64,000 nucleotides of DNA from Dissulfurispira thermophila (GTDB lineage: Bacteria > Nitrospirota > Thermodesulfovibrionia > Thermodesulfovibrionales > Dissulfurispiraceae): positions 1,178,001 to 1,242,000 of the forward strand of contig NZ_AP022873.1 of the NCBI RefSeq assembly GCF_014701235.1, given 5' to 3'. This document shows, piece after piece, positions 26,785-62,855 of the stretch. The notes under the pieces were generated by a model. The model had not been told where the DNA came from, did not search any database, and was given only the letters and a program-made list of their open reading frames with translations. Numbering within the stretch: the first letter of the stretch is position 1; every line of letters begins with the position of its first letter. The translations under genes were made by a program, and so were the position numbers.

Positions 26785-26882
26785 GATGGAGGATAATAAT
26801 GCCTACTGTAGAAGAAAGAGTTGATAGTCTTGAGGCAATATTAGGACGATTTATTATACATACTGACGTCTCTTTGAAAAGA

Positions 26883-27119
26883 TTTGAAGAACAAGCAGAG
26901 AGAGACAGACAAGTTTTTCATGAAGAGATGAAAAAGTTTGAAGAACGAGCAGAGAGAGACAGACAAGCCTTTCGTGAAGAGATGAAAAAGTTTGAAGAAC
27001 GAGCAGAGAGAGACAGACAAGCCTTTCGTGAAGAGATGAAAAAGTTTGAAGAACGAGCAGAGAGAGACAGACAAGCCTTTCGTGAAGAGATGAAAAAGTT
27101 TGAAGAACGAGCAGAGAGG
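26883..27119 (+). repeat. 54-bp tandem repeat encoding an 18-residue coiled-coil unit
   Basis: Four units of FEERAERDRQAFREEMKK plus a partial fifth, with the 54-bp copies nearly identical in DNA. Diverged copies continue beyond the IS256 element at about 28535-28760. Eighteen residues equals one heptad plus one hendecad, a spacing compatible with a continuous coiled coil. Confidence 0.9.
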
Positions 27120-27213: not shown

Positions 27214-28481
27214 ATGAAGGATAGCACAAGACAGAGGAAAAAAGTAATCAGAGGTATAGAGGAGGCATACGGCAGGCAATGGGTAGTAGAGCAGATGTAT
27301 CGGATATTAGCAAGGGGTAAGCAAGGATTTGACTCACTTATGATGGAGATGGGAAGGATGGTAGCAGAGGCAATAATGTATATAGACAGGGAAGAGACAG
27401 CAGGGCCTGAGTATAAACCATTTTGCCCTAACATATATAAATGGGCAAGTCAGCCTGGCTCAGTATATATAGCAGATCAAAAGGTGCGTGTAGAGAGACC
27501 TCGACTTCGTGGCAGGCAGGGGAAATACAATTAAAGAGTTATAAGAGAATGAAAGAACCTGATGGATTTTCTGAAGAGCTTTTGGCAAAGGTATTAAGGG
27601 GCATATCGTGTCAGAAGTATGCTGAGACAGTAATAGAGGCAGCGCAGGCATTTGGAGTATCACCGAGTTCAATATCGAGGCATATTATAGAGGCAACAGG
27701 GAAACAACTCAAAGAATTCAAGGAGAGGTCGTTGTCTGATTTTAGAGCCTTTGCCATATATCTTGACACAATACATCGAGCAGGTGAGGCATTTATAATT
27801 GCATTAGGAATAGACACAGAGGGTAAGAAGATGCCATTGGGATTCTGGCAGGGGGCGACAGAGAACCATGAACTATGCGAAGAACTGCTTGCGGACATAG
27901 AAAGGAGGGGATTAAAACTAACAAAGAGAACAATTTGGGTAACAGATGGGGGCAAGGGAATAATCAAGGCATTAAGGGACAAGTTTGGCAAGAAACTTCT
28001 ACATCAGCGTTGCACCATACATAAAGACAAGAACATACAGAAGCATCTTGCCAAGAGATATAGAAAAGAGGCACATCGGAGGTTTAAAACAGCATTGGAA
28101 CAGAAAAGCTATGAAGATGCAAAAGAGATGCTACTTGAAATGGAGAAATGGCTCAGGGGAATCAATGAATCAGCAGCAGATTCACTTTTAGAGGCGATAG
28201 AGGAAATACTTACGCTGCATCGGCTGAAAGTCCCTGAATTACTAAGGAAGACGCTATGCTCAACGAATCCAATAGAGAGCATGTTTTCAATGGTAAGGGA
28301 TGCAGAGGGTAATATTAAGAGGTATCGTAATAGCAGGATGAAACAGAGATGGCTTGCCTCTGTATTACTGTATTGCGAAAAGAGATTCAAAAGGGTTAAT
28401 GGGTATACCTCAATTCCTGATGTCATCAGGAATATTGAGGCATTAGAGGAAACAGGTGAAACTGTAAAAGTAGCAGCATAG
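27214..28481 (+). pseudogene. IS256-family transposase, frameshifted by one G
   Basis: Mutator-type DDE transposase. The N-terminal part (27214-27534) ends VERPRLRGRQG then goes out of frame; the rest runs in the next frame from EIQLKSYKRMKEPDGF to the end. The break is at CAGGGGAAATA (27517-27527); a fifth G restores the frame. Catalytic residues are visible in AIYLDTIHRAGE, WVTDGGKGI and STNPIESMFS. A clear AAAGGAG precedes ATG 27214. Apart from the shift the protein looks intact, at about 422 aa. Confidence 0.88.
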
Positions 28482-29289
28482 GAGAAAAATTAATGAGAGC
28501 CATTCAGAAAATTTCAACTAAAAACTTGACAAGCTCAGCAGAGAGAGACAGACAAGCCTTTCATGAAGAGATGAAAAAGTTTGAAGAACGAGCAGAGAGA
28601 GATAGACAAGGTTTTCGTGAAGAGATAAAGCAATATGAGGAGCGTGCTGAAAAAGATAGAAAGTCATTACACGAAGAAATGAAAGCTTTTAAAGATGAAA
28701 TGCGTGTATATAGAGAAGAATCTGAAAAAGATAGAAAGTCACTACACGAAGAAATGAAAGCTTTCAAAGATGAAATGGGCAAATATAAAAAGGAGCAAGA
28801 CGAGGAATGGAAAAAGTGGAGGAAAGAATGGAGTAATATTGCAAAAAAGATGGGAACCATTGTTGAAGACCTCATAGCACCTGTATTACGTCCTACCTTG
28901 AAAAAATATTTTAACTGCGAGGTATCACTCGAGGGACAGAGGATGTTCAGGAGGAAAAAGGGCGAAGACTATGAAGTTGATGCAATAGCAGCGTGTGATG
29001 ACAAGGTCTTTATGATAGAGGCTCGTTCAACTCCAAGAGACACTGATGTAAGAGAGATAAAGGAAAAGAGCGAGAGATTTTTTGAATTTTTCCCAGAATT
29101 TAAAGGTAAGAAGTTGATTATAATATTTGGAAGCATAACCTTTCCTGAAAATGTGCTTAGGTACGCAAGCAACATGGGAATATATGCAATGGGATGGAGA
29201 GAGTGGGAATACATGGATATATTGAATTTTGATGATGTAAAATCAATCTAATAAGCCTGTAAATTGGTAAAATTTGGTAAAATAGCGTT

Positions 29290-30390
29290 TTAATTTTTGT
29301 GGTTTCTTATAATCAACCACTCCGGTGTCTTAAACCGAACTATCCGCCAGTAAAGCCATATATATATAACGATAAATACTGAAACAAAGAAAGCCAATAT
29401 TAAAGTATATCGCCAAAAAAGCACAGCAGGCACCATGCTCAATAATGAAAATGCCCATAAATATGGAGACACCATAGAATTTCTGATGGTGATATGCCTT
29501 TTTCCATTAGAACTGGTAAGCCAATATAGAAGTCTTTTATATATCAGTTGATGTAGATGCATTGCATCAGGGATACCCACTTTAGTTCCTCTTAAAAATC
29601 TTCTGCGGTAGATCGAAAACAATGTCTCCCATACAGGATATATAACAAGCAAAAAAGGAAACCATGGCGATACTTCTATGTGTCTATTGACTAAAAGCAC
29701 AGAGACGTTTGCTATCATAAATCCCATAAAATATGCACCTCCATCACCTGCAAATATCAACCCCCTTGGATAATTCCATATAAGAAAACCCATTACAGCA
29801 CCTGCCATAACAGCATTTATTCTCAGAAGTAAGAAATCACCAACCATAAATGAAACATATCCTAAAGATGTAAAAATCATAAAGGCAATCATCCCTGAAA
29901 GTCCGTTGTATCCGTCTATAATATTCATTGCATTAGTAACACCACCTATAGCTATTAGTGTGAAAGCAAGAGAAAATACACCAAAATTAAGTAATGCATC
30001 AATAAAAGGCATATCAAATCTTGTTAATTTTATATCAAGCAAGAAATAACCGATAGTTACTCCACAAAAAACCATAATAAGACGCTTCAATGCATTAACT
30101 TTTTTTGTGATGTCTTCTGCAAGTCCACCTATAAAAACAGGAAGAGAGGAAAGCACAAGAAAACCTAAAAACTTAATATCAACACCTTTTGTAATCATAA
30201 TGGATAACCCTGCTAAAAATCCTATAAAAATTGCTATACCGCCAATTCTTGGTGTTGGTCGTGCATGAAATTTCTGCGGACCACTATTAACCACATCAAT
30301 GCCAAAGTCTTCATTCTTATAGGTATAACGAATAAGCATAAGTGCTGTAACAGCAGAAAAAATAAATGAAATTAAAAGGACAAGGATCAT
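29290..30390 (-). CDS. WecA/MraY-like undecaprenyl-phosphate sugar-1-phosphate transferase (366 aa)
   Basis: Polytopic membrane enzyme of glycosyltransferase family 4 that starts lipid-linked glycan synthesis by moving a HexNAc-1-phosphate from UDP to undecaprenyl phosphate. About ten to eleven membrane segments. Signatures: HARPTPRIGGIAIF in the first cytoplasmic loop, NAMNIIDGYNGLSG, FAGDGGAYFMGF, and the C-terminal loop AMHLHQLIYKR in place of the HIHH of WecA. Last gene of the long polysaccharide run. It probably primes the O-antigen made by the genes upstream; the exact sugar (GlcNAc or other) is not readable. Confidence 0.9.
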   Translation of the reverse strand: MILVLLISFIFSAVTALMLIRYTYKNEDFGIDVVNSGPQKFHARPTPRIGGIAIFIGFLAGLSIMITKGVDIKFLGFLVLSSLPVFIGGLAEDITKKVNALKRLIMVFCGVTIGYFLLDIKLTRFDMPFIDALLNFGVFSLAFTLIAIGGVTNAMNIIDGYNGLSGMIAFMIFTSLGYVSFMVGDFLLLRINAVMAGAVMGFLIWNYPRGLIFAGDGGAYFMGFMIANVSVLLVNRHIEVSPWFPFLLVIYPVWETLFSIYRRRFLRGTKVGIPDAMHLHQLIYKRLLYWLTSSNGKRHITIRNSMVSPYLWAFSLLSMVPAVLFWRYTLILAFFVSVFIVIYIWLYWRIVRFKTPEWLIIRNHKN

Positions 30391-30849
30391 CTATATAACA
30401 CCTCATATCTTTTTTTCACATAAAGCCTTAACAACATGACCACCAATATAACCTTTGCCATCTGCTTCAAAGATTTTTTGCATACAATTTTACCCCTCAT
30501 ACTTTTATTTTTTACCTCTTGTATCTTATCCATCTGTGTCATCCTCGGTGGCAATATCTTAGAGTGAAATGGACCAAAGATGCTCTTCGCCTGTGGCATC
30601 TCAATCTGTATATCCCCATTGCCAACCTTGATTGTCCTTATCTTTGACCACCTCCTGCTACCATTAGCTCTGTTAGTCCTTTCGTAATAATCCCTCCCAA
30701 GATATATCGTCACTTCTTCTTCTATGGCTGCCTATAACACCATCTGGGCACCTATCCTCGTTATCCTCTCTAATGACGGCGTAGTTGTTAGCTCCTTAAT
30801 CCCTTCCTCAAATGATTTTTTCCGACTTCTTTGATATACTTCTTTTCAC
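30387..30849 (-). pseudogene. Remnant of a second IS256-family transposase (N-terminal part)
   Basis: Reading from GTG 30849 gives VKRSISKKSEK, then after one frameshift KSFEEGIKELTTTPSLERI, then a stop, then AAIEEEVTIYLGRDYYERTN and KVGNGDIQIEMPQAKSIFG. This is the N-terminal region of mutator-type transposases. The catalytic part is missing; the last 25 or so codons (KQMAKVILVVMLLRLYVKK) do not look like transposase. A different, older element than the one at 27131. It fills most of the 553-bp gap between the WecA-like gene and wzz. Confidence 0.7.
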
Positions 30850-30904
30850 GGGTATAATTCTCCTTTCTTTTTTTAGTTTTAACAACCCATTGAGAATTAT
30901 ACCC
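30850..30904 (-). other. 13-bp perfect inverted repeat over the transposase Shine-Dalgarno
   Basis: GGGTATAATTCTC (30850-30862) and GAGAATTATACCC (30892-30904), separated by 29 nt. In the minus-strand transcript the inner arm contains the AGGAG and ends right at the GTG start of the transposase remnant, so the hairpin would hide the ribosome site. Confidence 0.7.
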
Positions 30905-30943
30905 TAATTTAAATTTGCAGAAAATATGTTACATTATCATCTC

Positions 30944-31672
30944 TCAGTCTCTTTTTGCCTTACTCCACCACTCAACTAAAAAGGCAAGAAATATCCCTGC
31001 AAAAAGTGAGCTAATGGCAGACACAGCAATAATCAACATCCTTTTAGGTTTCACTGGAGTCTCTGAAGAATTTGGATTTTCTACAACATAAAGAACGAAA
31101 TTTTTGCTTTTATCACTCCTTACCTTCTCTGAAGCAAGCACTTCTGAATAGGCAAGAGAGGCTTTATCAAGCTCTTTGCTAAACTCCTCAATAGCAGTCT
31201 GTAAAATCAATTCTCCAAACTTTCTTTCCCTTTGCTCTGATGTAAGCACAATGCTTCCTGTTTTCTTATCTATATCAGCTTTAAAAGGTGGGATATCGAT
31301 TAAACCATAAGTTTGCCTAATCTTATTACTCACCTTTTTCTGAAACTCAACACTCTTAAGTATTGAAAGACTCAGATTATTTACATCCGAAGGCCTATTT
31401 TGCTGCAAAGGAATTATAAAAGATAATCTACCATCCTTCACAGATTGATTCGCTTTAAGGTTTTTAATCATTGCCTGAGTCAAAAAAGAATCCACCCAAA
31501 GTGTTGCCCTTGCCTGATATATATTTGGCATAAGAAAACTAATCAAAGCTGCAATAGCAATGCCAATCACAAAAACACTAACAATGTATCTTATCCTCTT
31601 TTTAAAAACAAGAATTAACTCATAAAGATCAATCTCATCTGAGTATGCTTCTTTGTTTGCATTTTCCACCAT
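30944..31672 (-). CDS. Wzz-type polysaccharide chain-length determinant (242 aa)
   Basis: Inner-membrane Wzz/FepE/Etk-type co-polymerase that sets O-antigen chain length. Cytoplasmic start DEIDLYELILVFKKRIRYI; first membrane helix (VSVFVIGIAIAALISFLMP) followed by the family signature NIYQARATLWVDS; periplasmic helical region; second helix (MLIIAVSAISSLFAGIFLAFLVEWW) near the C-terminus after the proline-containing SSETPVKPKRM. Shorter than E. coli WzzB (about 325), so the periplasmic part is reduced. A truncated near-copy of its first 45 codons lies at 32412-32597. Confidence 0.88.
   Translation of the reverse strand: MVENANKEAYSDEIDLYELILVFKKRIRYIVSVFVIGIAIAALISFLMPNIYQARATLWVDSFLTQAMIKNLKANQSVKDGRLSFIIPLQQNRPSDVNNLSLSILKSVEFQKKVSNKIRQTYGLIDIPPFKADIDKKTGSIVLTSEQRERKFGELILQTAIEEFSKELDKASLAYSEVLASEKVRSDKSKNFVLYVVENPNSSETPVKPKRMLIIAVSAISSLFAGIFLAFLVEWWSKAKRD
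31568..31656. repeat. 89-bp direct repeat, copy 1 (within wzz)
   Basis: Identical to 32502-32590 over 89 bp as read by eye, with weaker similarity further out. It marks the duplication that produced the wzz fragment. Confidence 0.85.
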
Positions 31673-31699
31673 AATATTGCCTCCCCGATCCTTAATTTT

Positions 31700-31918
31700 C
31701 TAAAACTGCTTGATCTTCCCTTCTTTTTTCATTCTATTTATGATATCTTCTACTGTCTCGTCTTTAAATAACTCTCTTCTTAGTTCTGTATAATCTCCCT
31801 GTCCTTTTTCATACTGTAAAATAAACCTTAATGCTCCTGGAAGACCTAATTGTTTCTTTAATGCTTCCCAACCAGCTTTCTGTATTTCTATCGGAGTCAT
31901 ATCGAGAATTTTACTCAT
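31700..31918 (-). CDS. Small antitoxin-like partner of the PIN protein (72 aa)
   Basis: Small charged protein; its ATG overlaps the PIN gene stop by 4 nt. It starts MSKILDMTPIEIQKAGWEAL and contains a GDYTELRRELFKDETVEDII segment. It does not show the AbrB, RHH or Phd pattern of known VapB antitoxins, so the role is inferred only from its coupling to a PIN gene and from a second degraded copy beside a second PIN remnant (32607-32884). It could be an atypical antitoxin, placed downstream of the toxin instead of upstream. Confidence 0.65.
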   Translation of the reverse strand: MSKILDMTPIEIQKAGWEALKKQLGLPGALRFILQYEKGQGDYTELRRELFKDETVEDIINRMKKEGKIKQF

Positions 31919-32364
31919 ATTTTAAACACCTCCTTTGTGACAAACTCTATTAAACTTATTATCTTAACTTTTATTTTCTCTTTATTGGCCCTTCCTTTAC
32001 GAACTAATATATCGTCACATGTCACAAAAAAGTCAACACCTGCCATTTCCGCACATGCAATGTGCAATGCATCCATACCCATTATATCAAGTTTTTCAAT
32101 TTCCTTAGCTCTTTTTTCTAATTCTTCAGAATAATGGACATATTCATTCGCTACCTTTAAAAAGTCACAGATCCTGTTTCTTCTCTCAATAAATGGATTT
32201 TTGCTATTTTCATCTTCCAATACAAAAGAGTTTACTGTAGTGATTTCTCCATCTATAGCTTTTGATAAGAGAACTAGGAATTCTATAGTTTCTATCATGA
32301 TCCGGGGTTGTCGTTGATCATCAAATGGTCTATTGTAAACACACAGATCTAAATAAATCTTCAT
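31915..32364 (-). CDS. PIN-domain protein, putative VapC-like toxin (149 aa)
   Basis: PIN-fold ribonuclease. Acidic sites: D6 in MKIYLDLCVYNRPFDD, the acidic residues of VLEDENSKNP, D in IMGMDALHIACAEMAGVDFF, and the pair in FVTCDDILVRKG. Typical VapC toxins cut tRNA or rRNA and are held by an upstream antitoxin; here the only small partner is downstream. The module interrupts the wzz neighbourhood, between the full wzz and a truncated copy. Confidence 0.85.
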   Translation of the reverse strand: MKIYLDLCVYNRPFDDQRQPRIMIETIEFLVLLSKAIDGEITTVNSFVLEDENSKNPFIERRNRICDFLKVANEYVHYSEELEKRAKEIEKLDIMGMDALHIACAEMAGVDFFVTCDDILVRKGRANKEKIKVKIISLIEFVTKEVFKI

Positions 32365-32411
32365 TTGCTTATCCCAAGTATCAACAATTTCTTTGCTTCC
32401 TCCTTTTAGCT

Positions 32412-32597
32412 TTATATACTTACGGAACTGATAAGCCCCGGCCTTGCCTTATATATATTTGGCATAAAAAAATTAATCAAAGCTGCAATAACAACACCAA
32501 GCACAAAAACACTAACAATGTATCTTATCCTCTTTTTAAAAACAAGAATTAACTCATAAAGATCAATCTCATCTGAGTATGCTTCTTTGTCTGTCAT
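32412..32597 (-). pseudogene. Truncated duplicate of wzz (N-terminal 45 codons)
   Basis: MTDKEAYSDEIDLYELILVF and the following helix match the intact Wzz almost residue for residue up to PNIYKAR. Then come nine unrelated codons (PGLISSVSI) and a stop. The periplasmic region and second helix are absent. It keeps a good GGAGGAG before the start, so a short membrane peptide may still be made. Confidence 0.85.
32502..32590. repeat. 89-bp direct repeat, copy 2 (within the wzz fragment)
   Basis: Matches 31568-31656. Confidence 0.85.
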
Positions 32598-32606
32598 CTG
32601 CTCCTC

Positions 32607-32803
32607 CTAAAATTCAGCTTTTCCCTTTATCTCTTTTATAATTTCTTCAAGGCTTTTTTGATCAAAAATTTTTTTTCTTTCCTCAGTATAATTTCTATAA
32701 CCTTTTTCATATTCCAGAGTAAATAAAGCAGCATCTGCAATGCCTAATCGTGCACCAGCGCATCCCACCTTATTTTCTTTACTTCACTTATAGTTGGCAA
32801 CAT
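32607..32803 (-). pseudogene. Degraded copy of the small antitoxin-like gene
   Basis: From ATG 32803 the reading is MLPTISEVKKIRWDAL; after one frameshift near 32757 it continues ADAALFTLEYEKGYRNYTEE and RKKIFDQKSLEEIIKEIKG to a TAG at 32607. This parallels the intact 72-aa protein (GALRFILQYEKGQGDYTELR, ELFKDETVEDIINRMKK). The DNA is clearly diverged, so the duplication is old or came from a relative. Confidence 0.75.
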
Positions 32804-32884
32804 CAGAACACACCTCCTCTATAAATTTCAATAAACTACAAATCTTGACTTTAATCTTCTTCCTGATTCTTTTGTAATTTTTTA
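32804..32884 (-). pseudogene. C-terminal remnant of a second PIN gene
   Basis: The minus strand reads NYKRIRKKIKVKICSLLKFI and EEVC just before the degraded antitoxin copy, resembling the end of the intact PIN protein (NKEKIKVKIISLIEFVTKEV). The catalytic part is gone. Confidence 0.6.
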
Positions 32885-34006
32885 TTATGTTTTAATTATC
32901 TCAACAATCCTTTTGCTTGTCTGTCCATCTCCATAAGGATTAACTGCTTTTGCCATCTTTTGATATTCCTTATGATTTTCTATCAAAGTGCACACTTCTT
33001 TTAATATATTTTCTTTTTTTGTTCCAACAAGTTTTGCTGTTTCAGCTTCAATTCCTTCAATTCTCTCTGTTACATCTCTCATAACCAACACAGGTTTTCC
33101 TAATGAAGGTGCTTCTTCCTGAATCCCACCAGAGTCTGTCAAAATCATATAACACTTTGACATGAGCCAAATTAAATAGGGATACTCAAGGGGTTCAATT
33201 AAGAATACATTTTTTAACCCATTTAATATTCTTTGTACAGGCTCTCTCACATTTGGATTGAGATGGACAGGATAGATTATTTTCATATCATGATAAAGCT
33301 CTGCAATCTCTTTAAGGGCATTACAAATATTCTCAAATCCTTCTCCAAAGCTTTCTCTTCTGTGCCCTGTAACTAAAATTACTTTTTCACTGGCATCAAA
33401 AAAATAATTAAAGTATGACTCAATCTTATTCTTTAAATCCCGATTTTCTTCTACAATTTTCAATCCTAAAAACAAAGCATCAATGACTGTATTTCCAACA
33501 ACCCAGACATTATCTTTGATTCCTTCATTATATAAATTTAGTTTTGCCCTTTCTGTTGGTGCAAAATGATAATCAGCAATATGCCCAATAAGGATTCTAT
33601 TAATCTCTTCTGGATAGGGTGAGTATTTATCCCCACTTCTAAGTCCTGCTTCTATATGAGCAACTTTAATTTTTTTATAAAATGCAGCAAGTGCTCCTGT
33701 AAAAGCTGTGGTTGTATCTCCTTGGACTAAAACTATATGAGGGCTAAATTCATTTATTACTTTTTCCAAACCTTTCAGGCTATAGGATGTGATATCAAAA
33801 AGACTCTGATTTTCTCTCATTAAATCTAAATCATAATCAGGCTTAATACCAAAAAAATTAAGCACCTGATCAAGCATATGCCTGTGCTGAGCTGTAACAC
33901 AGACTTTTACAAGAAAGTCATTTGGATATTTTTTAAACTCCCAATAAAGAGGAGCTAATTTTATAGCTTCTGGGCGAGTGCCAAAAATGAAAAGTATTTT
34001 TTTCAC
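32885..34006 (-). CDS. wecB: UDP-GlcNAc 2-epimerase, non-hydrolysing (about 373 aa)
   Basis: Interconverts UDP-GlcNAc and UDP-ManNAc for surface polysaccharide. Starts KKILFIFGTRPEAIKLAPL; catalytic and substrate segments HIEAGLRSGDKYSPYPEEIN, ILVTGHRRESFGEGF, YPVHLNPNVREPV and TDSGGIQEEAPSLGKPVLVM are all present. The likely start is GTG 34006, next to GGGGGA; a GTG at 34024 overlaps the previous stop. No WecC-type dehydrogenase is adjacent. Confidence 0.94.
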   Translation of the reverse strand: MKKILFIFGTRPEAIKLAPLYWEFKKYPNDFLVKVCVTAQHRHMLDQVLNFFGIKPDYDLDLMRENQSLFDITSYSLKGLEKVINEFSPHIVLVQGDTTTAFTGALAAFYKKIKVAHIEAGLRSGDKYSPYPEEINRILIGHIADYHFAPTERAKLNLYNEGIKDNVWVVGNTVIDALFLGLKIVEENRDLKNKIESYFNYFFDASEKVILVTGHRRESFGEGFENICNALKEIAELYHDMKIIYPVHLNPNVREPVQRILNGLKNVFLIEPLEYPYLIWLMSKCYMILTDSGGIQEEAPSLGKPVLVMRDVTERIEGIEAETAKLVGTKKENILKEVCTLIENHKEYQKMAKAVNPYGDGQTSKRIVEIIKT

Positions 34007-35138: not shown

Positions 35139-36350
35139 CTATTTAAAATAGTTTATCAATTTTTCTATGCATATATCCCTGTCAAAATTTTTTTTAACAT
35201 ATTGTAAGCCTTTTTTACCAATCTCTCCCAATGTCTGCTTTTTATCATATAATTTTCTTATTAAATTTTCTGCTTCATTGTAGTTTCCATATAAACAGGA
35301 ATACCCACATCCAGCTTTTTTTATAATCAAGTGTCCATCACTTTCTTTATTTAAAAATGCAAGAACAGGTATTCCAGCACCCATATATCCTAATATTTTT
35401 CCGGGAACTACTGGAGTTTTATTTTTATCAGCAAGGCATACTAAACCAACATCACAATCCTTTACAAGCAGCGGATAGTCTTCCTTAGAAACAAAAGATT
35501 TAAAAATAATATTTTTCAAATTCTTTTTTCTTGCCACTTCCTCAAGTTTTTTTCTTTCCATACCATCTCCAACAAACAAAAATACAAGATCATCAATGTC
35601 CTGAATCCTTTCAGCCAGTTCAATAACAAAATCAAGTCCCTGTGATGGTCCCATAACTCCAGCAAAAAGAATAATAAACTTATTTTCTAATCCGTAAAGT
35701 TTTCTAAAATAATTTTTTCTTTCAAAACTTTCAAATTCTCTCGTGTTAATCCAATTATGTAGTACTATCAATTTTTTTGAAATATAAGGATGTTTATTTC
35801 TTAAAAACCTCTCATTATTTTCTGAATGAACAAAAATGACATCTGCACCTTTATAAGCCTGTTTCTCCATATATTGAAAAAACTTAATTAACAGGCGATT
35901 TTTAAGAATTCCTAAATCTATTGCATTCTGCGGAAAAATATCCTGCACATTGAGAATAAATTTAGCTTTATAAAACTGCTTTAAACTCGCTCCTAAATTT
36001 GCCAAAGTCAAAGGCGGGCTGTATACAATTATAAAATCAACATGAGTAATGTATTTTTTAATTTTCAATGAAAAAATATAGGGCATTGTAAGCTGAGAAA
36101 TTCCTCTGATTATAAAATTTACATTGTGATGTGGCAGGGTTTTTATCCTTAAAGCTTTAATATTTTTTTCTTCTGTAAATTCTGGATAATTTATTCCTCT
36201 TTGGTTTTTCGACAAATTATATTCAGGATAAGTGGTGGCGACAAAAACATTAAAACCTTTTTCATTCAGACCTTCTGCAAGCTCCTGCATAAGATGTGAG
36301 GCAGATCTAATTTCAGGTGGATATGAGTCTGTAATTATAAGTATATTCAT
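35139..36350 (-). CDS. Glycosyltransferase family 4, WbuB-like (403 aa)
   Basis: GT-B glycosyltransferase. N-terminal MNILIITDSYPPEIRSASHL with donor-domain segments NKFIILFAGVMGPSQGLDFV, LVFLFVGDGMERKKLEEV and GKILGYMGAGIPVLAFLNKE. This pattern matches WbuB-like transferases of O-antigen clusters. The acceptor and sugar are unknown. Its ATG overlaps the stop of the bi-domain oxidoreductase by 4 nt (ATGA). Confidence 0.9.
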   Translation of the reverse strand: MNILIITDSYPPEIRSASHLMQELAEGLNEKGFNVFVATTYPEYNLSKNQRGINYPEFTEEKNIKALRIKTLPHHNVNFIIRGISQLTMPYIFSLKIKKYITHVDFIIVYSPPLTLANLGASLKQFYKAKFILNVQDIFPQNAIDLGILKNRLLIKFFQYMEKQAYKGADVIFVHSENNERFLRNKHPYISKKLIVLHNWINTREFESFERKNYFRKLYGLENKFIILFAGVMGPSQGLDFVIELAERIQDIDDLVFLFVGDGMERKKLEEVARKKNLKNIIFKSFVSKEDYPLLVKDCDVGLVCLADKNKTPVVPGKILGYMGAGIPVLAFLNKESDGHLIIKKAGCGYSCLYGNYNEAENLIRKLYDKKQTLGEIGKKGLQYVKKNFDRDICIEKLINYFK

Positions 36351-38506
36351 ATTTTAATTACCTGTCCCTTTGACAAAGATTCATTAATTTTAAAAACGCA
36401 TAAGGTTGAATAATATATTTCCTCATATTGAATTTTGGGAGTATCTTTGCCCGTTATCACATCTATAAAATGTTTGAGTTCTTCCTTATAGCCCATTTCC
36501 TGATTAAGCGTTTTAAACTTTTTAGTCTTTCCGCCAAGCCAGTAATAGGAATTTTTGAAGTCCTCGATAACGAAAGTCTTACCTTCACAGTAAACTTCAA
36601 CCCTTTCTCTTGAAAATGCTTTATCACCTAATGCTGAATAAAATATATTTCCAATTGAGCCATCTTTGAATTTAATCACTATTGATACATTGTCATTATT
36701 AACAACTGTTCTATTGTTTCCTGAAACCCTCTCCGCATATGCCTGAACTGGAATACTCTCCGTTAAATAAATCATAAAATCAACAAAATGGCAGACCTCA
36801 CCAATTATTCTCCCCCCCCCTTCTCCCTCTGAATGAACCCAGTGCTCAGGAGGAATATAACCAGCATTCACTCTATAATTGAGCATGATTGGGTCTTTTC
36901 TTTTTGATAAATATTCAAAAATTTTTTCTCCATGTGGTGAAAATCTTCTGTTATAGCCCACCATTAAAAATGGGTTATTTGACGAGTTTTTATAAACTCT
37001 GGTTATATTTTCTAACTCCTCCTCATTTATGCATAAAGGCTTTTCAACAAAAATATTCTTTCCTGATTGTAAAGCTTCAATAACCATTTTCGCATGCAGA
37101 CTATGTGGTGTAAGGATTATCACTGAATTTATTTCTTCATTTTTCAAAATGGTTTTATAATCTGTTGTGCAGTTTTCAAAACCATATTTTTTTGCTGTAT
37201 GATAAACATTCGCTCCTGATGATGTGCAAAGAGTATGTAACTTTATACCATCAATTTTTGCCAAAGCAGGAATAAGCAAAGCCTTACCAAATAAGCCTGC
37301 TCCAATCACACCAATTGATACTTTGTCTGAAGCTTTAACTCTTTGTGTTAGTGCTTTAAATTTTTCCGCTTTAATATCTCTTTCATCAGGATAATTTATT
37401 ACAACGCCAATATAGGGTCCTCCTCTGTCAGCAAGAATGTCCTTATAGATTTGTAATGCCTGATTTATTGGAATCCTGTGGGTAATCAATGCCTCAGTTA
37501 ATACTCTTTTTTCTGAAAGTAACCTTAAAAACTCCTCTAAATTTCGGTTTTCCGTCCATCTGACAAATCCAATGGGATAATCAATTCCTTTATTTTCATA
37601 AATAGGATCAAGACTACCAGGGCCTGCTGCTTTTGATACAATAATTTCTACCTCTTTATGCCACATTTCATTTCTATTAGGATGAATATCAGCAACACCT
37701 ACAACAACTATCCTGCCAGCGTAACGGGAAATTTCCACAGCAAGATGAACTAACTCATCGCTTTTTGTTGCAGCAGTGATAATAACGGCATCAGCACCAT
37801 AACCACTGGTATATCTTTCTACTAAGTTTTTGAATTCCTCCACATTGGTTGTTGCATTATCTGCCCCCAACTTTTTAGCTAAATCAACTTTGGATGTATC
37901 AATATCAAACCCTATGACAGTAGATCCATAAGCCTTTAAAATTTGAACAGTCAAAAGCCCCAGCAGTCCAAGCCCTAATACAGCTACTTTTTCCCCAAAA
38001 GAGAGTTTTGCACAACGAATTCCATGCATGGCAATAATTCCAAGCATTCCAAAAGATGCTTCTTCAAAACTAACATTATCAGGTATTTTACAGCATAGAT
38101 TTTCTGGCACAGTAATATATTCAGCATGAGAAGCATATCCAGCCCCAATACACGCAATTCTATCACCAACAGAAAATTTATGAACATTCCTGCCAGTTTC
38201 TATTACGACCCCGGCTGAACTATATCCAAGAGGCGTTGGATTGTCTAATCTACCCAAGGCTTCTTGAAAGGTTTTTAAAAATCCTTCCTTTTTTGCTTTA
38301 TCAAGAAAGCGTTTTACAAGGTCAGGACGAGCCTTTGCTTTCCCTAAAAGAGATTTTTTACCCAGATCAATAATAGACCGCTCAGTTCCAACACTGACAA
38401 GAGAAGCATAATTCTTAACAAGAACAGTATTTGAAGATACATTTGGCACAGGAACATCAGCTATTTCTAATTCACCTGTGCGATAGTTTTGGATTAGTTG
38501 CTTCAT
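36347..38506 (-). CDS. Bi-domain oxidoreductase: zinc-ADH-like plus Gfo/Idh/MocA (719 aa)
   Basis: Fusion of a medium-chain dehydrogenase-like domain (about 1-360; NAD loop VAVLGLGLLGLLTVQIL) with a Gfo/Idh/MocA sugar dehydrogenase domain (about 375-719; IGVIGAGLFGKALLIPALAK and the EKPLCINEEE signature). Such fusions are recurrent in surface-polysaccharide clusters, with unproven reaction; oxidation or reduction of a nucleotide sugar is likely. The coding strand holds a run of nine G (36812-36820) within EGEGGGRIIGEV, in frame here. Confidence 0.9.
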   Translation of the reverse strand: MKQLIQNYRTGELEIADVPVPNVSSNTVLVKNYASLVSVGTERSIIDLGKKSLLGKAKARPDLVKRFLDKAKKEGFLKTFQEALGRLDNPTPLGYSSAGVVIETGRNVHKFSVGDRIACIGAGYASHAEYITVPENLCCKIPDNVSFEEASFGMLGIIAMHGIRCAKLSFGEKVAVLGLGLLGLLTVQILKAYGSTVIGFDIDTSKVDLAKKLGADNATTNVEEFKNLVERYTSGYGADAVIITAATKSDELVHLAVEISRYAGRIVVVGVADIHPNRNEMWHKEVEIIVSKAAGPGSLDPIYENKGIDYPIGFVRWTENRNLEEFLRLLSEKRVLTEALITHRIPINQALQIYKDILADRGGPYIGVVINYPDERDIKAEKFKALTQRVKASDKVSIGVIGAGLFGKALLIPALAKIDGIKLHTLCTSSGANVYHTAKKYGFENCTTDYKTILKNEEINSVIILTPHSLHAKMVIEALQSGKNIFVEKPLCINEEELENITRVYKNSSNNPFLMVGYNRRFSPHGEKIFEYLSKRKDPIMLNYRVNAGYIPPEHWVHSEGEGGGRIIGEVCHFVDFMIYLTESIPVQAYAERVSGNNRTVVNNDNVSIVIKFKDGSIGNIFYSALGDKAFSRERVEVYCEGKTFVIEDFKNSYYWLGGKTKKFKTLNQEMGYKEELKHFIDVITGKDTPKIQYEEIYYSTLCVFKINESLSKGQVIKI
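36812..36820. repeat. Nine-base C/G homopolymer inside the bi-domain gene
   Basis: Nine C on the plus strand, coding GGG in the second domain of the bi-domain oxidoreductase. The frame is open at this length; a change of one base would truncate the protein. Candidate slippage site. Confidence 0.6.
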
Positions 38507-44056: not shown

Positions 44057-45358
44057 TTATTCATTTTTTAGTGATAATCTGCGAGCAGATGATAAAATAT
44101 GTGAACTTAATGCTATAAGAATTGGCACTATAATCGAAAATTCCAAAATTAATTTTACCAATGTTATTTCAAAATCCCTGAATAAACTTATAGCCATCCA
44201 GCCTGAAATCAAAATATACATCACTTTGGGTAACACAGTATCCTGAGACTTTAAAAAACTTAGAAATGCAGACAATGTAAACAAAAACAACATAGAGCCT
44301 AATATGCCAAAATTGACTATAAGAGAAAAAAACAAATGCAAAGCACCAAAAGGTGAATAAGCCGAATAACCTAAGGAGTCGTAGTCAATAAAATAACTAC
44401 TTTTGTCAGGAAACAAAAATGTTGGCAGAATATTGAGCAATTGACTCACTAAACCAATTGGCAGATTCAAAAGCGGCATTGTATTTTCACTGAGTAGATT
44501 TATAAGAGAAAAACTATTAAATAATGTATCTGATAAAAACCATATCTTTAATAAAAGTTAAATTAATAAAATCACTTGTTTGTGTTTGTAAAAGAGCTCC
44601 AGTTCTTAAAAATGGCATAACTATAGAAAACAGTATCACACAAATGGTAATAAAAACGAAATTTTTTATCTTAACTCGTTTATAATAAACTAATAACATT
44701 ATCAGAAATGAGACAGCCCAAGTCCTTCCTCCCAAGGATGAAAGTAAAACAACAAAAATAAAATATATAACAAAATACCTATTAAAAATCGTGTTCTTAA
44801 ATGTTACTATCCGTCTTTTTTTATTTACATTTATAATAAGTGCTATTGAGAGTAATATATTAGTAGCTGCTGTGAATGATCCCTTCCACAATGGAGTAGC
44901 ACTGATAGAATATCCTGTAAAAAAGAAGTCTTTAAGTGTATATGCAAAAAAGGAAGCTGCTAAAACTCCTAAAACAAAAAATACATTAAGAACAGAACTA
45001 TTCAATTCAAACTCCTTAATTTTAAAAATATTATTATTTTTACCTAAAAAAAACTTCCAATTACAAAAGACATATAACAAAAAAGGCTGATTAATAAATA
45101 TTTTATCAGGACATAATCATTAATTTGATCAAAAATCTGGTAATATTCATTCATAGAAGGTTCATATTCAAATAACCTTATTAGTCCAAATAAAATAGGA
45201 AATATCCAATAGAAAATAAAAGCAGCACTAAAAAGCAAGATATGATCAATTTTTACTCCATCTTTGCTAAAATTATTATTTAGCTTAATACAAAAAATTA
45301 AAGGAATTAAAAGATTAAGCGAGATTAATGCAATTATAATAAGTTGACTAATTTCCAT
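44057..45358 (-). pseudogene. O-antigen polymerase-like membrane protein, two frameshifts
   Basis: Three open pieces belong to one polytopic protein: 45358-45044 (MEISQLIIIALISLNLLIPL to SFVIGSFF), 45051-44517 (LGKNNNIFKIKEFELNSS to FIRYII) and 44514-44057 (LFNSFSLINLLSENTMPLLN to the end). At 45046-45053 the coding strand has eight T where nine join FVIGSFF to LGKNNN. Near 44517 one missing base would join RYI to LFNSFSL. About ten hydrophobic segments and the internal GGRTWAVSF and DYDSLGYSAYSPFG segments suit a Wzy-type polymerase (oligosaccharide repeat-unit polymerase). Either a decayed gene, a slippage-switched gene or a consensus error. Confidence 0.75.
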
Positions 45359-53471: not shown

Positions 53472-53563
53472 AAGCTTAAAAATCTATCTCTAAAATGTTT
53501 AATTTCAATACAACTTTTTTAAAAATTATTTTAAAACAGCTTGACTTGATTTTTATACTGTTT

Positions 53564-53591
53564 CATTACAAGTTTTTCATTACAAGTTTTT
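53564..53591. repeat. Perfect 14-bp tandem duplication
   Basis: CATTACAAGTTTTT twice. It lies over the last codons of the polymerase-like gene and changes its C-terminus. Confidence 0.9.
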
Positions 53592-54993
53592 GTTAAATAT
53601 TTCATGCCTATTCCATAAATCTTTACCCATATAAACGCCAATACAGACAAACGCATCGCTTCGATAATGAGCGTGTCGATGCCGAGACTATTTAACCAGA
53701 GGTGGTAATATATGTATAAAAGAGTGGCCCTATAAAAGTACATGTTGAACGTGTTGGCTGATCTAATTGATAAATATATGAGTTTAAAAAAATAAGCTGC
53801 TACCAATAATACTACCAAAGAACCATATCCATAAAAAAGCACATAGTACTCACCGAACACGGTCATCTGGTCGGTATTAGCAATATTTTCAGAAAAATCT
53901 ATATTATTATAGACATTTGAGAGTTTGCTTGATGCTCTACCAGTATGGAATACGTCAAAACCAGGGGTTGTTGAATCAATAACACTTTTCAAAAATAATT
54001 CAAAATTTATAGCCTTCTCGTATACGTCACTGTTAGAAATTATATCTGTTGCCATATCAAGAAAGCCGATTCTATCAAATAAATTTGCAAAGTTTTGCAA
54101 CCAGTCGTTTTTATATTTATAAGAAATAAAAGAAGAATAAAACTGCTCATAATCAATATTTTTTGATGTTTGTTGCTCATATAATGCAAATCTGGCACTT
54201 GTACCGAAATTGAATAATATAATTGAAACTGGGATGATTATAAGAATTGCAAGCAAAGTTGATTTACCAATCGATACTTTATTCTTCACAGACAATGCAG
54301 CAAATATTGCAGTTAAGATCACTGTCAAAATACCGCTTCTACTGCCATAAATAGTTCTAATCAAGACGAAGATTATAAATAAAAACCAAATTATATAAAG
54401 ATATTTTTTGGAAATATCTTCTTTCTTGTTATTAATTATATACACCCATATACCCATGAGTATAATATCATAATTCATAAATACATTTATATAACTCTCC
54501 AATCGGTTATATAAAGGAGCAAGTCTCCCCATGCCACCGTAAAATAAAGAATAAATTGTATATATCAGCAAGAATAGAAATATAAATATTACAGTGATCG
54601 GGTTAATTAATCTGTCATTATTTGGAAAATACAGGTTATTTCTTCTTTTTATCGGAATACCATTGATGTTTAGTCCCAAAAAAAAATAAACCATACAGCA
54701 AAAAATATAAAGATCATGGTTAAATTAAGATTATAAGCAGTTAATTCGTTTATTCTATTCAAAGAGTACGAGACTGGCAAATATATAAGAGTTGCTACAC
54801 GTGCAAGATAGAAAAAGATGATGTTAAATGCTAATAATAAAACAAATGGATCCCTTCTTTTTTTCTCAAACATTAAGATTATTTGCATTTGAGCGCTCAG
54901 TAAAAATACCAGGATTAATGTGTAAATATCTATGTATGGATTTTGTTCTGATGTAGAATATAGACATATTGTTATTGTAAAAATGAATACATT

Positions 54994-55013
54994 TGCTATT
55001 TTGTGCTATTTTG
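54994..55013. repeat. Perfect 10-bp tandem duplication
   Basis: TGCTATTTTG twice. It shifts the frame in the N-terminal part of the polymerase-like gene. Confidence 0.9.
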
Positions 55014-55175
55014 AGCAAGCTATTCAAATCAAAAATGGATTTATTCCCCTCAATCTTTTGAGAAGCATTCGATGTAGCAGTCATAGTGTTTTTTCTTACA
55101 TCAAACTATATTTTTCTAACTATCACTAGCTTATGATTATTTGTTCTAACGGTCTCTGAAAGGATATTTTATGAA

Positions 55176-56168
55176 CTATGAATTCAACAAAATATGGACT
55201 TTATTTCTAAAATCATGCAATGCACGCCATGCACCAGGCAGATATATAGCAAAATAGAGAATAAAATATTTATAATTAACCAATTTATAAGGATGAAGAT
55301 ATGTTCTTGCTTCCCTTAGATTTCCGTTTTTTATTGCAGTATCTGCTTTCAAATAAGCAATCAGTGCATTTAAATATTTAAGCTCTGAGTGATATTTCTT
55401 ATTAAACGATGGCTCTAGTTGTTTGAACTTATCAACTATATACAAAATTTCTTTTGCAAATCCACTTTTAAATTTTATGCTACTCATATCTTTGTGAATA
55501 CGATATATAGCTAATGGTTCTTTCGAATATGCAGCTTTGGACTTAAAAAGAATGCGCATAAAAAGGTCATATTCTGCAGATAAATTAAGGTTTTCATCAA
55601 ATAAAGTACCAATAGAGGTCAAAGCAGTTTTCCTGATTATTACTGTCTGCATGTTCACTGTATATTGTCTTAACATTTGTCTAAATATATGCCCATCAGG
55701 CTGATTCCTTTTCAAACCTAATACCAATTTATTATTTTTAGACATGATCATCCTAAAATAATTGCTATAAACTAAATCTATACATGGTTTGCTTTCCAAA
55801 ATGTTTATTTGTTTCTCTAACTTCTCTGGCAACCATATATCATCGCAATCTAAAAAAGCTATATATTCACCTCTTGCTTGCTCAATTGCCCAGTTTCTTG
55901 CTTTGCCAAGGGGAACAGTCTCCTCGCTCCTGAAATATCTCAACTTCTCATCATAACTTTTTGCAATATCAGCGCTACTATCCGTAGATGCATTATCCCA
56001 AAATATTATCTCCCAGTCTTTATAAGTCTGAGCATAGACGCTGTCAATAGCCTCACGAAGATATTTCTCGCCGTTAAGACAGTTCATGATAACGCTAACA
56101 GTTGGAGAGGATAAGGGTGAGTTGGTGCGAAGGTGTGAAGGTGTGAGGTTTTCTTTTTGATTATTCAT
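55176..56168 (-). CDS. Glycosyltransferase family 2 (about 330 aa)
   Basis: GT-A glycosyltransferase: PTVSVIMNCLNGEKYLREAI, WDNASTDSSADIAKSYD, LGKARNWAIEQARGEYIAFL, DCDDIW as the DxD metal site and FDENLNLSAEYDLFMRIL. ATG 56168 overlaps the upstream stop by 8 nt and gives MNNQKENLTPSHLRT; longer starts run through the previous gene. The first 20 or so residues before PTVSVIMN are encoded by an octamer repeat. C-terminal helical region. Acceptor unknown. Confidence 0.88.
   Translation of the reverse strand: MNNQKENLTPSHLRTNSPLSSPTVSVIMNCLNGEKYLREAIDSVYAQTYKDWEIIFWDNASTDSSADIAKSYDEKLRYFRSEETVPLGKARNWAIEQARGEYIAFLDCDDIWLPEKLEKQINILESKPCIDLVYSNYFRMIMSKNNKLVLGLKRNQPDGHIFRQMLRQYTVNMQTVIIRKTALTSIGTLFDENLNLSAEYDLFMRILFKSKAAYSKEPLAIYRIHKDMSSIKFKSGFAKEILYIVDKFKQLEPSFNKKYHSELKYLNALIAYLKADTAIKNGNLREARTYLHPYKLVNYKYFILYFAIYLPGAWRALHDFRNKVHILLNS
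56113..56152. repeat. Octamer array, word GAAGGTGT (5 units)
   Basis: AAGGGTGA, GTTGGTGC, GAAGGTGT, GAAGGTGT, GAGGTTTT in 8-bp phase, encoding the N-terminal leader of the family-2 transferase (NLTPSHLRTNSPL). Confidence 0.75.
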
Positions 56169-56610
56169 CGGATGAGTTCCAATTATAGGGTATTTTTTTA
56201 TCATACGGGTCAATATGTTCTGATTCAACCGGCTCATGTGGCATATCAGTGCAGTTTGCAACCAAGGCAAATTCTTTAGATATTCCTTTAAATCCATACC
56301 ATAAAAGAGGCGGAATCCTGACAAGATGATAGTTATCTTCACCTATCTCTAATATCTCAATTTTTTTTCTGCTCACTGAATTTAAACGATCATCGTAAAT
56401 TACGAGCTTAATCTTGCCCACTGGAACAGCAAAATGCTGGGTCATTCTTAAATGCCTTTTCCATGCCTTGACTGCTCCTGGATTAACAATTGAAAAATAT
56501 ATCTCGCCAAATTTTGTAAAAAGAGGCGAGTCAGACCTAATCATGTGCATGACCTTTCCTCGTTCATCAATTATTTGTTTTAATGGTTGAATAACTACGC
56601 CGTCTATCAC
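56161..56610 (-). CDS. RmlC-like sugar 3,5-epimerase family protein (149 aa)
   Basis: Cupin of the dTDP-4-dehydrorhamnose 3,5-epimerase family: MIDGVVIQPLKQIIDERGKV, GEIYFSIVNPGAVKAWKRHL with the base histidine, TQHFAVPVGKIKLVIYDDR and PPLLWYGFKG. Shorter than RmlC (about 180). Placed after CDP-glucose 4,6-dehydratase, it may epimerise the CDP-4-keto-6-deoxy sugar (as in CDP-tyvelose or ascarylose routes). Start ATG 56610. Confidence 0.85.
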   Translation of the reverse strand: MIDGVVIQPLKQIIDERGKVMHMIRSDSPLFTKFGEIYFSIVNPGAVKAWKRHLRMTQHFAVPVGKIKLVIYDDRLNSVSRKKIEILEIGEDNYHLVRIPPLLWYGFKGISKEFALVANCTDMPHEPVESEHIDPYDKKIPYNWNSSDE

Positions 56611-62135: not shown

Positions 62136-62855
62136 TTATGCCTTAGCTAATTCCTTGATAACTTCTGCAAGTCTGCATAAATCTTTTACCTTTATACAAT
62201 CTATATTAGCAAAAATAGATTCATTATCATTAATTCTTGCTATAAAATTTACAAGATTATCTTTTGTAGCCTCATAATCACTCAAGGCATCCCCTACATA
62301 AACAAAGGATTGAGGGCTGAGAGGTGAGGACTGAGTGGGAAGGATTGAGGGATAAGGGGAAAGGACTGAGGACTGAGGACTGAGGGATGAAGTATTAACA
62401 GTAAGTATCTCACGGACAATGTCTACCTTTTTTTTAGGAGAACCGTAAATCCCTTTGAAATATCTCATCATATTTCTTCTTTTGATAATCTCCTCTATCT
62501 CTTCCTGTGGAGTAGCAGAGGCAATATAACAATCATAAACAACGGAGTATGCATCCAAGAATTCTTTTGCACCTTTTACATATGGCGCATTCACCACTTC
62601 ATCTACTACCAATTCAGAAAATCTCTTGCACAAGGCTTTGAAAATCTCATCTGTAAGTTCTCTCTCAAGTATCTCTTTATATATATATCTGAATTTCTCA
62701 AACCTTGATACCCCTGCATTTTTGAGATGATAATCAACGATCTTTTCAACAATCTCTTTCCTTTCAGATTCAAATAATTTAGCAAAGGCTTTTGTTTTTA
62801 TATCCACAGACTCTACTAACACACCATCAAAATCAAAAATAATAGCCTTAATCAT
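62136..62855 (-). CDS. HAD-family phosphatase with a repeat-encoded loop (239 aa)
   Basis: Haloacid dehalogenase fold: motif I AIIFDFDGVLVESVDIKTKA, motif II region YIASATPQEEIEEII, KKKVDIVREIL, motif IV YVGDALSDYEATKDN. Acts on a phosphorylated small molecule or sugar phosphate; substrate not readable. Between the motif III region and motif IV, 28 residues (SSLSPQSSVLSPYPSILPTQ and on) are encoded by a 12-unit heptad array in frame; without it the protein is a normal 211-aa HAD. The intergenic region before ATG 62855 carries the same heptad word. Confidence 0.9.
   Translation of the reverse strand: MIKAIIFDFDGVLVESVDIKTKAFAKLFESERKEIVEKIVDYHLKNAGVSRFEKFRYIYKEILERELTDEIFKALCKRFSELVVDEVVNAPYVKGAKEFLDAYSVVYDCYIASATPQEEIEEIIKRRNMMRYFKGIYGSPKKKVDIVREILTVNTSSLSPQSSVLSPYPSILPTQSSPLSPQSFVYVGDALSDYEATKDNLVNFIARINDNESIFANIDCIKVKDLCRLAEVIKELAKA
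62307..62390. repeat. Heptad array, word GGACTGA (12 units, 84 bp)
   Basis: GGATTGA, GGGCTGA, GAGGTGA, GGACTGA, GTGGGAA, GGATTGA, GGGATAA, GGGGAAA, three GGACTGA, GGGATGA, all in exact 7-bp phase. 84 bp is a multiple of three, so the HAD frame is kept. Confidence 0.95.

What the first reader, a model, noticed from the sequence alone, without database searches (positions are those of the whole stretch)
53531..55084. Polymerase-like gene with 10-bp and 14-bp perfect tandem duplications and a poly-T break
Three independent indels in one membrane gene. Removing one copy of each duplication restores a sensible protein start and end. These are slippage-type changes and could be reversible, switching O-antigen polymerisation on and off.
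Basis: seen in the sequence. Interest (0 to 1): 0.6.

Follow-up and report, generated by a model that had tools for sequence, protein, structure and literature searches.

The report
Frameshifted surface-polysaccharide polymerase gene, recently broken
In an environmental Nitrospirota bacterium, a gene for an enzyme that probably links sugar units into surface chains was recently broken by a 10-base tandem duplication and a second small frameshift, and the only other such gene in the cluster is broken too; this looks like recent loss of long sugar chains rather than a working on/off switch.

Summary
The gene (minus strand) is a Wzy-like polymerase. One intact 499-aa homologue (33% identity, another Nitrospirota genome) aligns across all its pieces. 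The homologue and a codon-usage frame model agree on two frame breaks: one at the 10-bp duplication, one in a 55-bp interval holding the T9 run. The 14-bp duplication is not a break; it only alters the last dozen or so residues. So there are two disabling indels, not three. The cluster's only other Wzy-like gene (44057-45358) is also frameshifted, at an interval with a T8 run and at a second place, while neighbouring glycosyltransferase, sugar and flippase genes are open. No extra in-frame stops have accumulated, so the breaks are recent. Most likely this is a recent, effectively fixed loss of O-unit polymerisation. Reversible switching is not excluded, but two independent reversions would be needed and no mixed alleles could be examined. 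The chemistry is well precedented (pneumococcal capsule duplications; poly-A tracts in Vibrio cholerae O-antigen genes). Modest interest.

The parts
53531..55084 (-). Wzy-like oligosaccharide repeat unit polymerase gene, frameshifted (three open pieces)
   Evidence: ORF map; homologue L004:1489-2985 aligns across all pieces at 33%; NF033860 E 3.3e-6 on the joined reading, under cut-off
54994..55013 (-). 10-bp perfect tandem duplication, first frame break
   Evidence: the homologue matches a single copy; codon model switches at 55001
54670..54724 (-). Interval of the second frame break, containing a T9 run (A9 on + at 54678-54686)
   Evidence: Both frames open here; codon-model posterior shifts mainly over 54692-54670
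53561..53591 (-). 14-bp perfect tandem duplication near the 3' end; alters only the C-terminal tail
   Evidence: no frame switch in the codon model
44057..45358 (-). Second Wzy-like polymerase gene of the same cluster, also frameshifted (three pieces)
   Evidence: TIGR04370 E 0.0012 on the joined reading, under cut-off
45046..45116 (-). First break interval of the second polymerase, with a T8 run (A8 on + at 45046-45053)
44520..44557 (-). Second break interval of the second polymerase
55176..56342 (-). Intact family 2 glycosyltransferase, neighbour
   Evidence: Pfam PF00535 E 4.8e-34
30944..31672 (-). Wzz-type chain-length determinant, one sign of a Wzx/Wzy-type cluster
   Evidence: Pfam PF02706 E 1.3e-12

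Best explanation
A Wzy-like polymerase gene of a Wzx/Wzy-type surface-polysaccharide cluster was recently inactivated by two small indels. One is a 10-bp tandem duplication, a replication-slippage product. The other lies in a T-rich stretch, probably at the T9 run. Translation from 55084 leaves frame after about 27 correct residues and stops early, so no full polymerase is made (inferred). The cluster's only other polymerase-like gene is also frameshifted, so the cell probably carries unpolymerised (single-unit) or no O-chain from this cluster (inferred). Because two independent lesions must both be undone, this is most likely a fixed loss of function at an early stage of decay rather than a routinely used switch.
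For: Intact homologue aligns over all pieces and shows the duplication as an insertion. Codon-usage model independently finds both switches. Second polymerase gene broken twice. Neighbouring cluster genes, including the flippase-like gene at L027:7559-9082, are open. No additional in-frame stops over roughly 930 joined codons of the two genes with about 5% of changes making a stop, which by my estimate puts neutral divergence since the breaks below about 2-4%. Gene absent from the three other genomes of the genus, so it is strain- or species-specific cargo.
Against: A perfect 10-bp direct duplication and a T9 run are exactly reversible kinds of change, and both genes breaking at T8/T9-containing intervals is more patterned than random decay predicts. 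Family assignments are below curated cut-offs. Only one homologue is known, at 33% identity, so the exact second lesion is not resolved.
Confidence: 0.62

Rival explanations
1. Phase variation: the 10-bp duplication (and T8/T9 runs in both polymerase genes) gain and lose copies, switching O-unit polymerisation on and off in the population, for example under phage predation.
For: Perfect repeats; the only two genuine ORF breaks at A/T runs of 8 or more in a 464-kb sample are these two polymerase genes; A/T runs of 9 are rare. Precedents: tandem duplications in pneumococcal cap3A and cap8E, poly-A tracts of 8-9 in V. cholerae wbeL and manA, A7 in E. coli kpsC.
Against: Two breaks must revert together in this gene and two more in the other; two-copy units are classed as at most mutable rather than hypermutable in a review of such repeats; no allele variation could be observed.
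Confidence: 0.18
2. Assembly or sequencing error accounts for the homopolymer breaks; the 10-bp duplication alone is real, or even the whole gene is intact.
For: The homopolymer breaks are of the type that some sequencing platforms mis-call.
Against: 62 of 87 A8/T8 runs in the sample lie inside intact long ORFs, and the run-length distribution matches two independently assembled relatives. Homopolymer error does not create a perfect 10-bp duplication.
Confidence: 0.1
3. Slippage during expression (transcriptional slippage or -1 ribosomal frameshifting on the U9 and U8 runs) restores the frame at those two points, so the runs are functional and only the other lesions matter.
For: Both T runs sit where a shift in the same direction would rejoin the frames.
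Against: Does not bypass the 10-bp duplication or the second break of the other gene; no stimulatory structure examined; no conserved run in the homologue.
Confidence: 0.06

Closest known systems
Spontaneous tandem duplications in pneumococcal capsule genes cap3A, cap8E and tts (Waite et al. 2001, 2003, cited in PMC2995930 and PMC4022640)
   Same: Tandem duplication inside a surface-polysaccharide gene abolishes function; there it is documented as high-frequency phase variation.
   Different: There phase variation was documented and the gene is otherwise intact; here a second frame break is present, the gene is a polymerase and reversal is untested.
Vibrio cholerae O1 wbeL and manA poly-A contingency loci (PMC3441752)
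   Same: A/T homopolymers of 8-9 in O-antigen synthesis genes, frameshift loss of function, phage as selective force.
   Different: There single-base changes at one tract, reversal shown for manA; here no selection or reversal data, and several lesions.
Oligosaccharide repeat unit polymerases (NCBIfam TIGR04370, NF033860; Pfam PF04932 Wzy_C)
   Same: Hydrophobic multi-helix protein next to glycosyltransferases, in a cluster with Wzx- and Wzz-like genes; weak profile matches across the frame breaks.
   Different: Scores lie below the curated cut-offs; the gene is frameshifted.

Membership tests
Wzy-type oligosaccharide repeat unit polymerase | Profile match over the curated cut-off | tested here: not met
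   NF033860 26.3 bits (cut-off 75) on the joined reading; TIGR04370 22.3 bits (cut-off 40) for the intact homologue; PF04932 24.8 bits (cut-off 31.7). Hence called Wzy-like only.
Wzy-type oligosaccharide repeat unit polymerase | Location in a cluster with glycosyltransferases, Wzx and Wzz | tested here: met
   Glycosyltransferases, Wzz, Wzx-like 507-aa protein at L027:7559-9082, weak match
Wzy-type oligosaccharide repeat unit polymerase | Fold of the Wzy/WaaL superfamily | tested here: inconclusive
   AlphaFold model of the homologue had mean pLDDT 37.8 with two sequences, unusable; no PDB sequence relative
Phase-variable (contingency) locus | Repeat whose copy number decides the reading frame | tested here: met
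   10-bp duplication shifts the frame relative to the homologue
Phase-variable (contingency) locus | One change switches the gene back on | tested here: not met
   A second frame break remains at 54670-54724
Phase-variable (contingency) locus | Both alleles coexist in the population or among strains | not testable with these tools
   No reads; no other genome with this gene except a 33% homologue
Recent pseudogene | Frame-breaking lesions relative to an intact homologue, little further decay | tested here: met

The most novel reading that the evidence does not exclude
Both O-unit polymerase genes of one cluster act as paired contingency loci in an environmental Nitrospirota bacterium, with T8/T9 runs and a 10-bp tandem unit jointly setting polymer length or phage sensitivity, possibly with leaky decoding at the T runs.
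Probability: 0.08. Interest if true: 0.5.

Novelty: new member of a known kind. Interest (0 to 1): 0.24.

Why it matters
If the breaks are fixed, this is a snapshot of a cell recently giving up long surface polysaccharide, a common response to phage pressure or to laboratory growth. If they are reversible, it would extend surface-sugar phase variation, best studied in pathogens, to a free-living Nitrospirota lineage. The coincidence that both polymerase genes, and none of the other full-length genes around them, are frameshifted points to selection on polymerisation itself.

Tried and rejected
Profile search of separate pieces: nothing in Pfam, weak TIGR04370 only. Homologues in 60 relatives, 395 genomes of the phylum, 176 of the order, genome contigs and plasmids: one real homologue; weak hits L011-L015 not taken as orthologues (L011 read: a ligase-like protein without full-length similarity; the others not read). 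Structure prediction of the homologue: unusable, so no fold search was made. PDB sequence search: none. Homologue for the second polymerase: none in 395 genomes. A third apparent ORF break at a T8 run (L026:7378) proved to be antisense noise. Idea that the 14-bp duplication is a break: rejected. Idea that poor homopolymer calling is general: not supported. Paper searches for a wzy gene switched by tandem duplication found no direct precedent in the held library.

Full report
What is there. The gene lies on the minus strand, 55084 down to 53531, in three open pieces: an N-terminal piece from the ATG at 55084; a middle piece in another frame, open from 55005 to 54673; and a long piece back in the first frame, open from 54724 to 53534 (397 codons). 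The 10-bp perfect tandem duplication (54994-55013) sits at the first change of frame. An A9 run on the + strand (T9 in the gene) at 54678-54686 sits at the second. The 14-bp perfect duplication (53561-53591) lies near the 3' end.

Which of these are lesions. Searching 395 genomes of the phylum with the pieces joined by X gave one real homologue, in a genome of the same order, with an uninterrupted frame (499 aa from its ATG) and 33% identity over query residues 15-488. The named-contig search shows it is the Nitrospirae MAG WY4.bin7, contig JAKAKQ010000264.1. In the alignment the homologue's residues DLNVLLRIVNVF run straight through the place of the 10-bp duplication, so the second copy is an insertion relative to the family. 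A three-frame codon-usage model trained on other genes of this genome, which knows nothing of the homologue, switches frame at about 55001 and again between 54692 and 54670, and stays in one frame through the 14-bp duplication. Of five intact neighbouring genes used as controls, three stay in one frame throughout and two show a switch only within the last few codons. So two indels disable the gene. The 14-bp duplication only alters the last dozen or so residues, a region that is not alignable with the homologue; 'restoring a sensible end' is not evidence for it. The second break can be placed only within 54670-54724. The T9 run is the likeliest site, but the homologue differs by several residues there, so a small indel just upstream is possible.

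Is it more than chance. In the window plus twenty spread 20-kb stretches of the same chromosome (464 kb), perfect tandem pairs of period 10 or more number 14, against 0 to 3 in dinucleotide shuffles; most are built from 7-bp units or are longer coding repeats. About five are not, and two of these are in this gene (about 0.02 expected; post hoc). A/T runs of 9 are the ceiling in this genome (6 in 464 kb, none longer), and the same ceiling is seen in two relatives assembled separately. 62 of 87 A/T runs of 8 lie inside intact long ORFs, so a general homopolymer-calling fault is unlikely.

What the gene is. Pfam finds nothing in the pieces. The joined reading matches NCBIfam NF033860, oligosaccharide repeat unit polymerase (Wzy O6/O28), E 3.3e-6 over residues 82-465, but under the curated cut-off; the homologue matches TIGR04370 and Wzy_C, also under cut-off. 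The setting fits: glycosyltransferases, NDP-sugar genes (by their translated sequences), Wzz and, beyond the window, a Wzx-like 507-aa protein (L027:7559-9082). It is best called Wzy-like. A structure prediction of the homologue was unusable.

The second polymerase gene. At 44057-45358 a second polymerase-like gene (TIGR04370, E 0.0012 on the joined reading, under cut-off) is broken twice, once in an interval containing a T8 run (45046-45053) and once at 44520-44557. In the 464-kb sample the only genuine ORF breaks at A/T runs of 8 or more were in these two genes; a third candidate was antisense noise. In the cluster, and in the continuation read in L027, the other full-length genes are open, though a few fragments (a Wzz N-terminus, epimerase pieces, transposase remnants) exist. 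That exactly the two polymerase-like genes among some 35-45 genes are frameshifted is unlikely by chance (about 1 in 600 to 1 in 900 if genes were hit at random, a rough estimate of mine that ignores gene length). The genome has an intact Wzy_C-type gene elsewhere, at about 2.189 Mb, which may be a ligase or a polymerase of another polymer.

Age. Neither gene has gained a further in-frame stop over about 930 joined codons, although about 5% of single-base changes would create one. By my estimate this bounds neutral divergence since the breaks at a few per cent. The breaks are recent.

How it works. Best supported: loss of polymerisation. Translation leaves the frame at the duplication; without Wzy the cell would cap its lipid core with single O units or none (established for Wzx/Wzy pathways, from general knowledge). 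Selection by phage or relaxed selection in culture could both drive this; nothing here separates them. Reversible switching is chemically plausible and well precedented: tandem duplications in pneumococcal capsule genes, poly-A tracts in V. cholerae O-antigen genes under phage attack, A7 in E. coli kpsC. Against it, one reversion does not restore this gene, the other polymerase needs two more, and two-copy units are not in the hypermutable class.

Verdict. It is an interesting but ordinary case of a recently frameshifted surface-polysaccharide polymerase gene. The paired breakage of both polymerase genes is the part worth a read-level check.

Noticed in passing
   Followed up: yes
62325-62385; L027:7472-7492; L026:16445-16475; L036:6103-6128: Heptanucleotide tandem arrays recur across this genome and two congeners; some sit in frame inside enzyme ORFs and encode SPQSS/QSSVL-like inserts (window 62136-62855; L027 451-1491 and 6566-7558).
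   Followed up: partly
36812-36820: A C9 run (G9 in the gene), the longest G/C run in the 464-kb sample, inside the intact 719-aa ORF 36347-38506 of the same cluster; it encodes a Gly-Gly-Gly stretch that looks like a conserved dehydrogenase motif (from memory, not tested).
   Followed up: no
G000, G001, G002 samples: A/T homopolymers fall off sharply at 9 and are absent at 10 or more in three genomes of the genus, below the trend from shorter runs.
   Followed up: partly
30390-32890: Duplicated and truncated Wzz genes (32606-32415 fragment, 30944-31672 intact) with an inserted ORF that looks like a PIN-type protein (31915-32364) and a Mutator-like transposase remnant (30390-30845); assignments of the last two are by eye.
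   Followed up: no
26877-27118 and 28537-28787: 54-bp and 75-bp coding tandem repeats (RAERDRQ.. coiled-coil type) on both sides of a transposase-like gene at 27441-28481.
   Followed up: no
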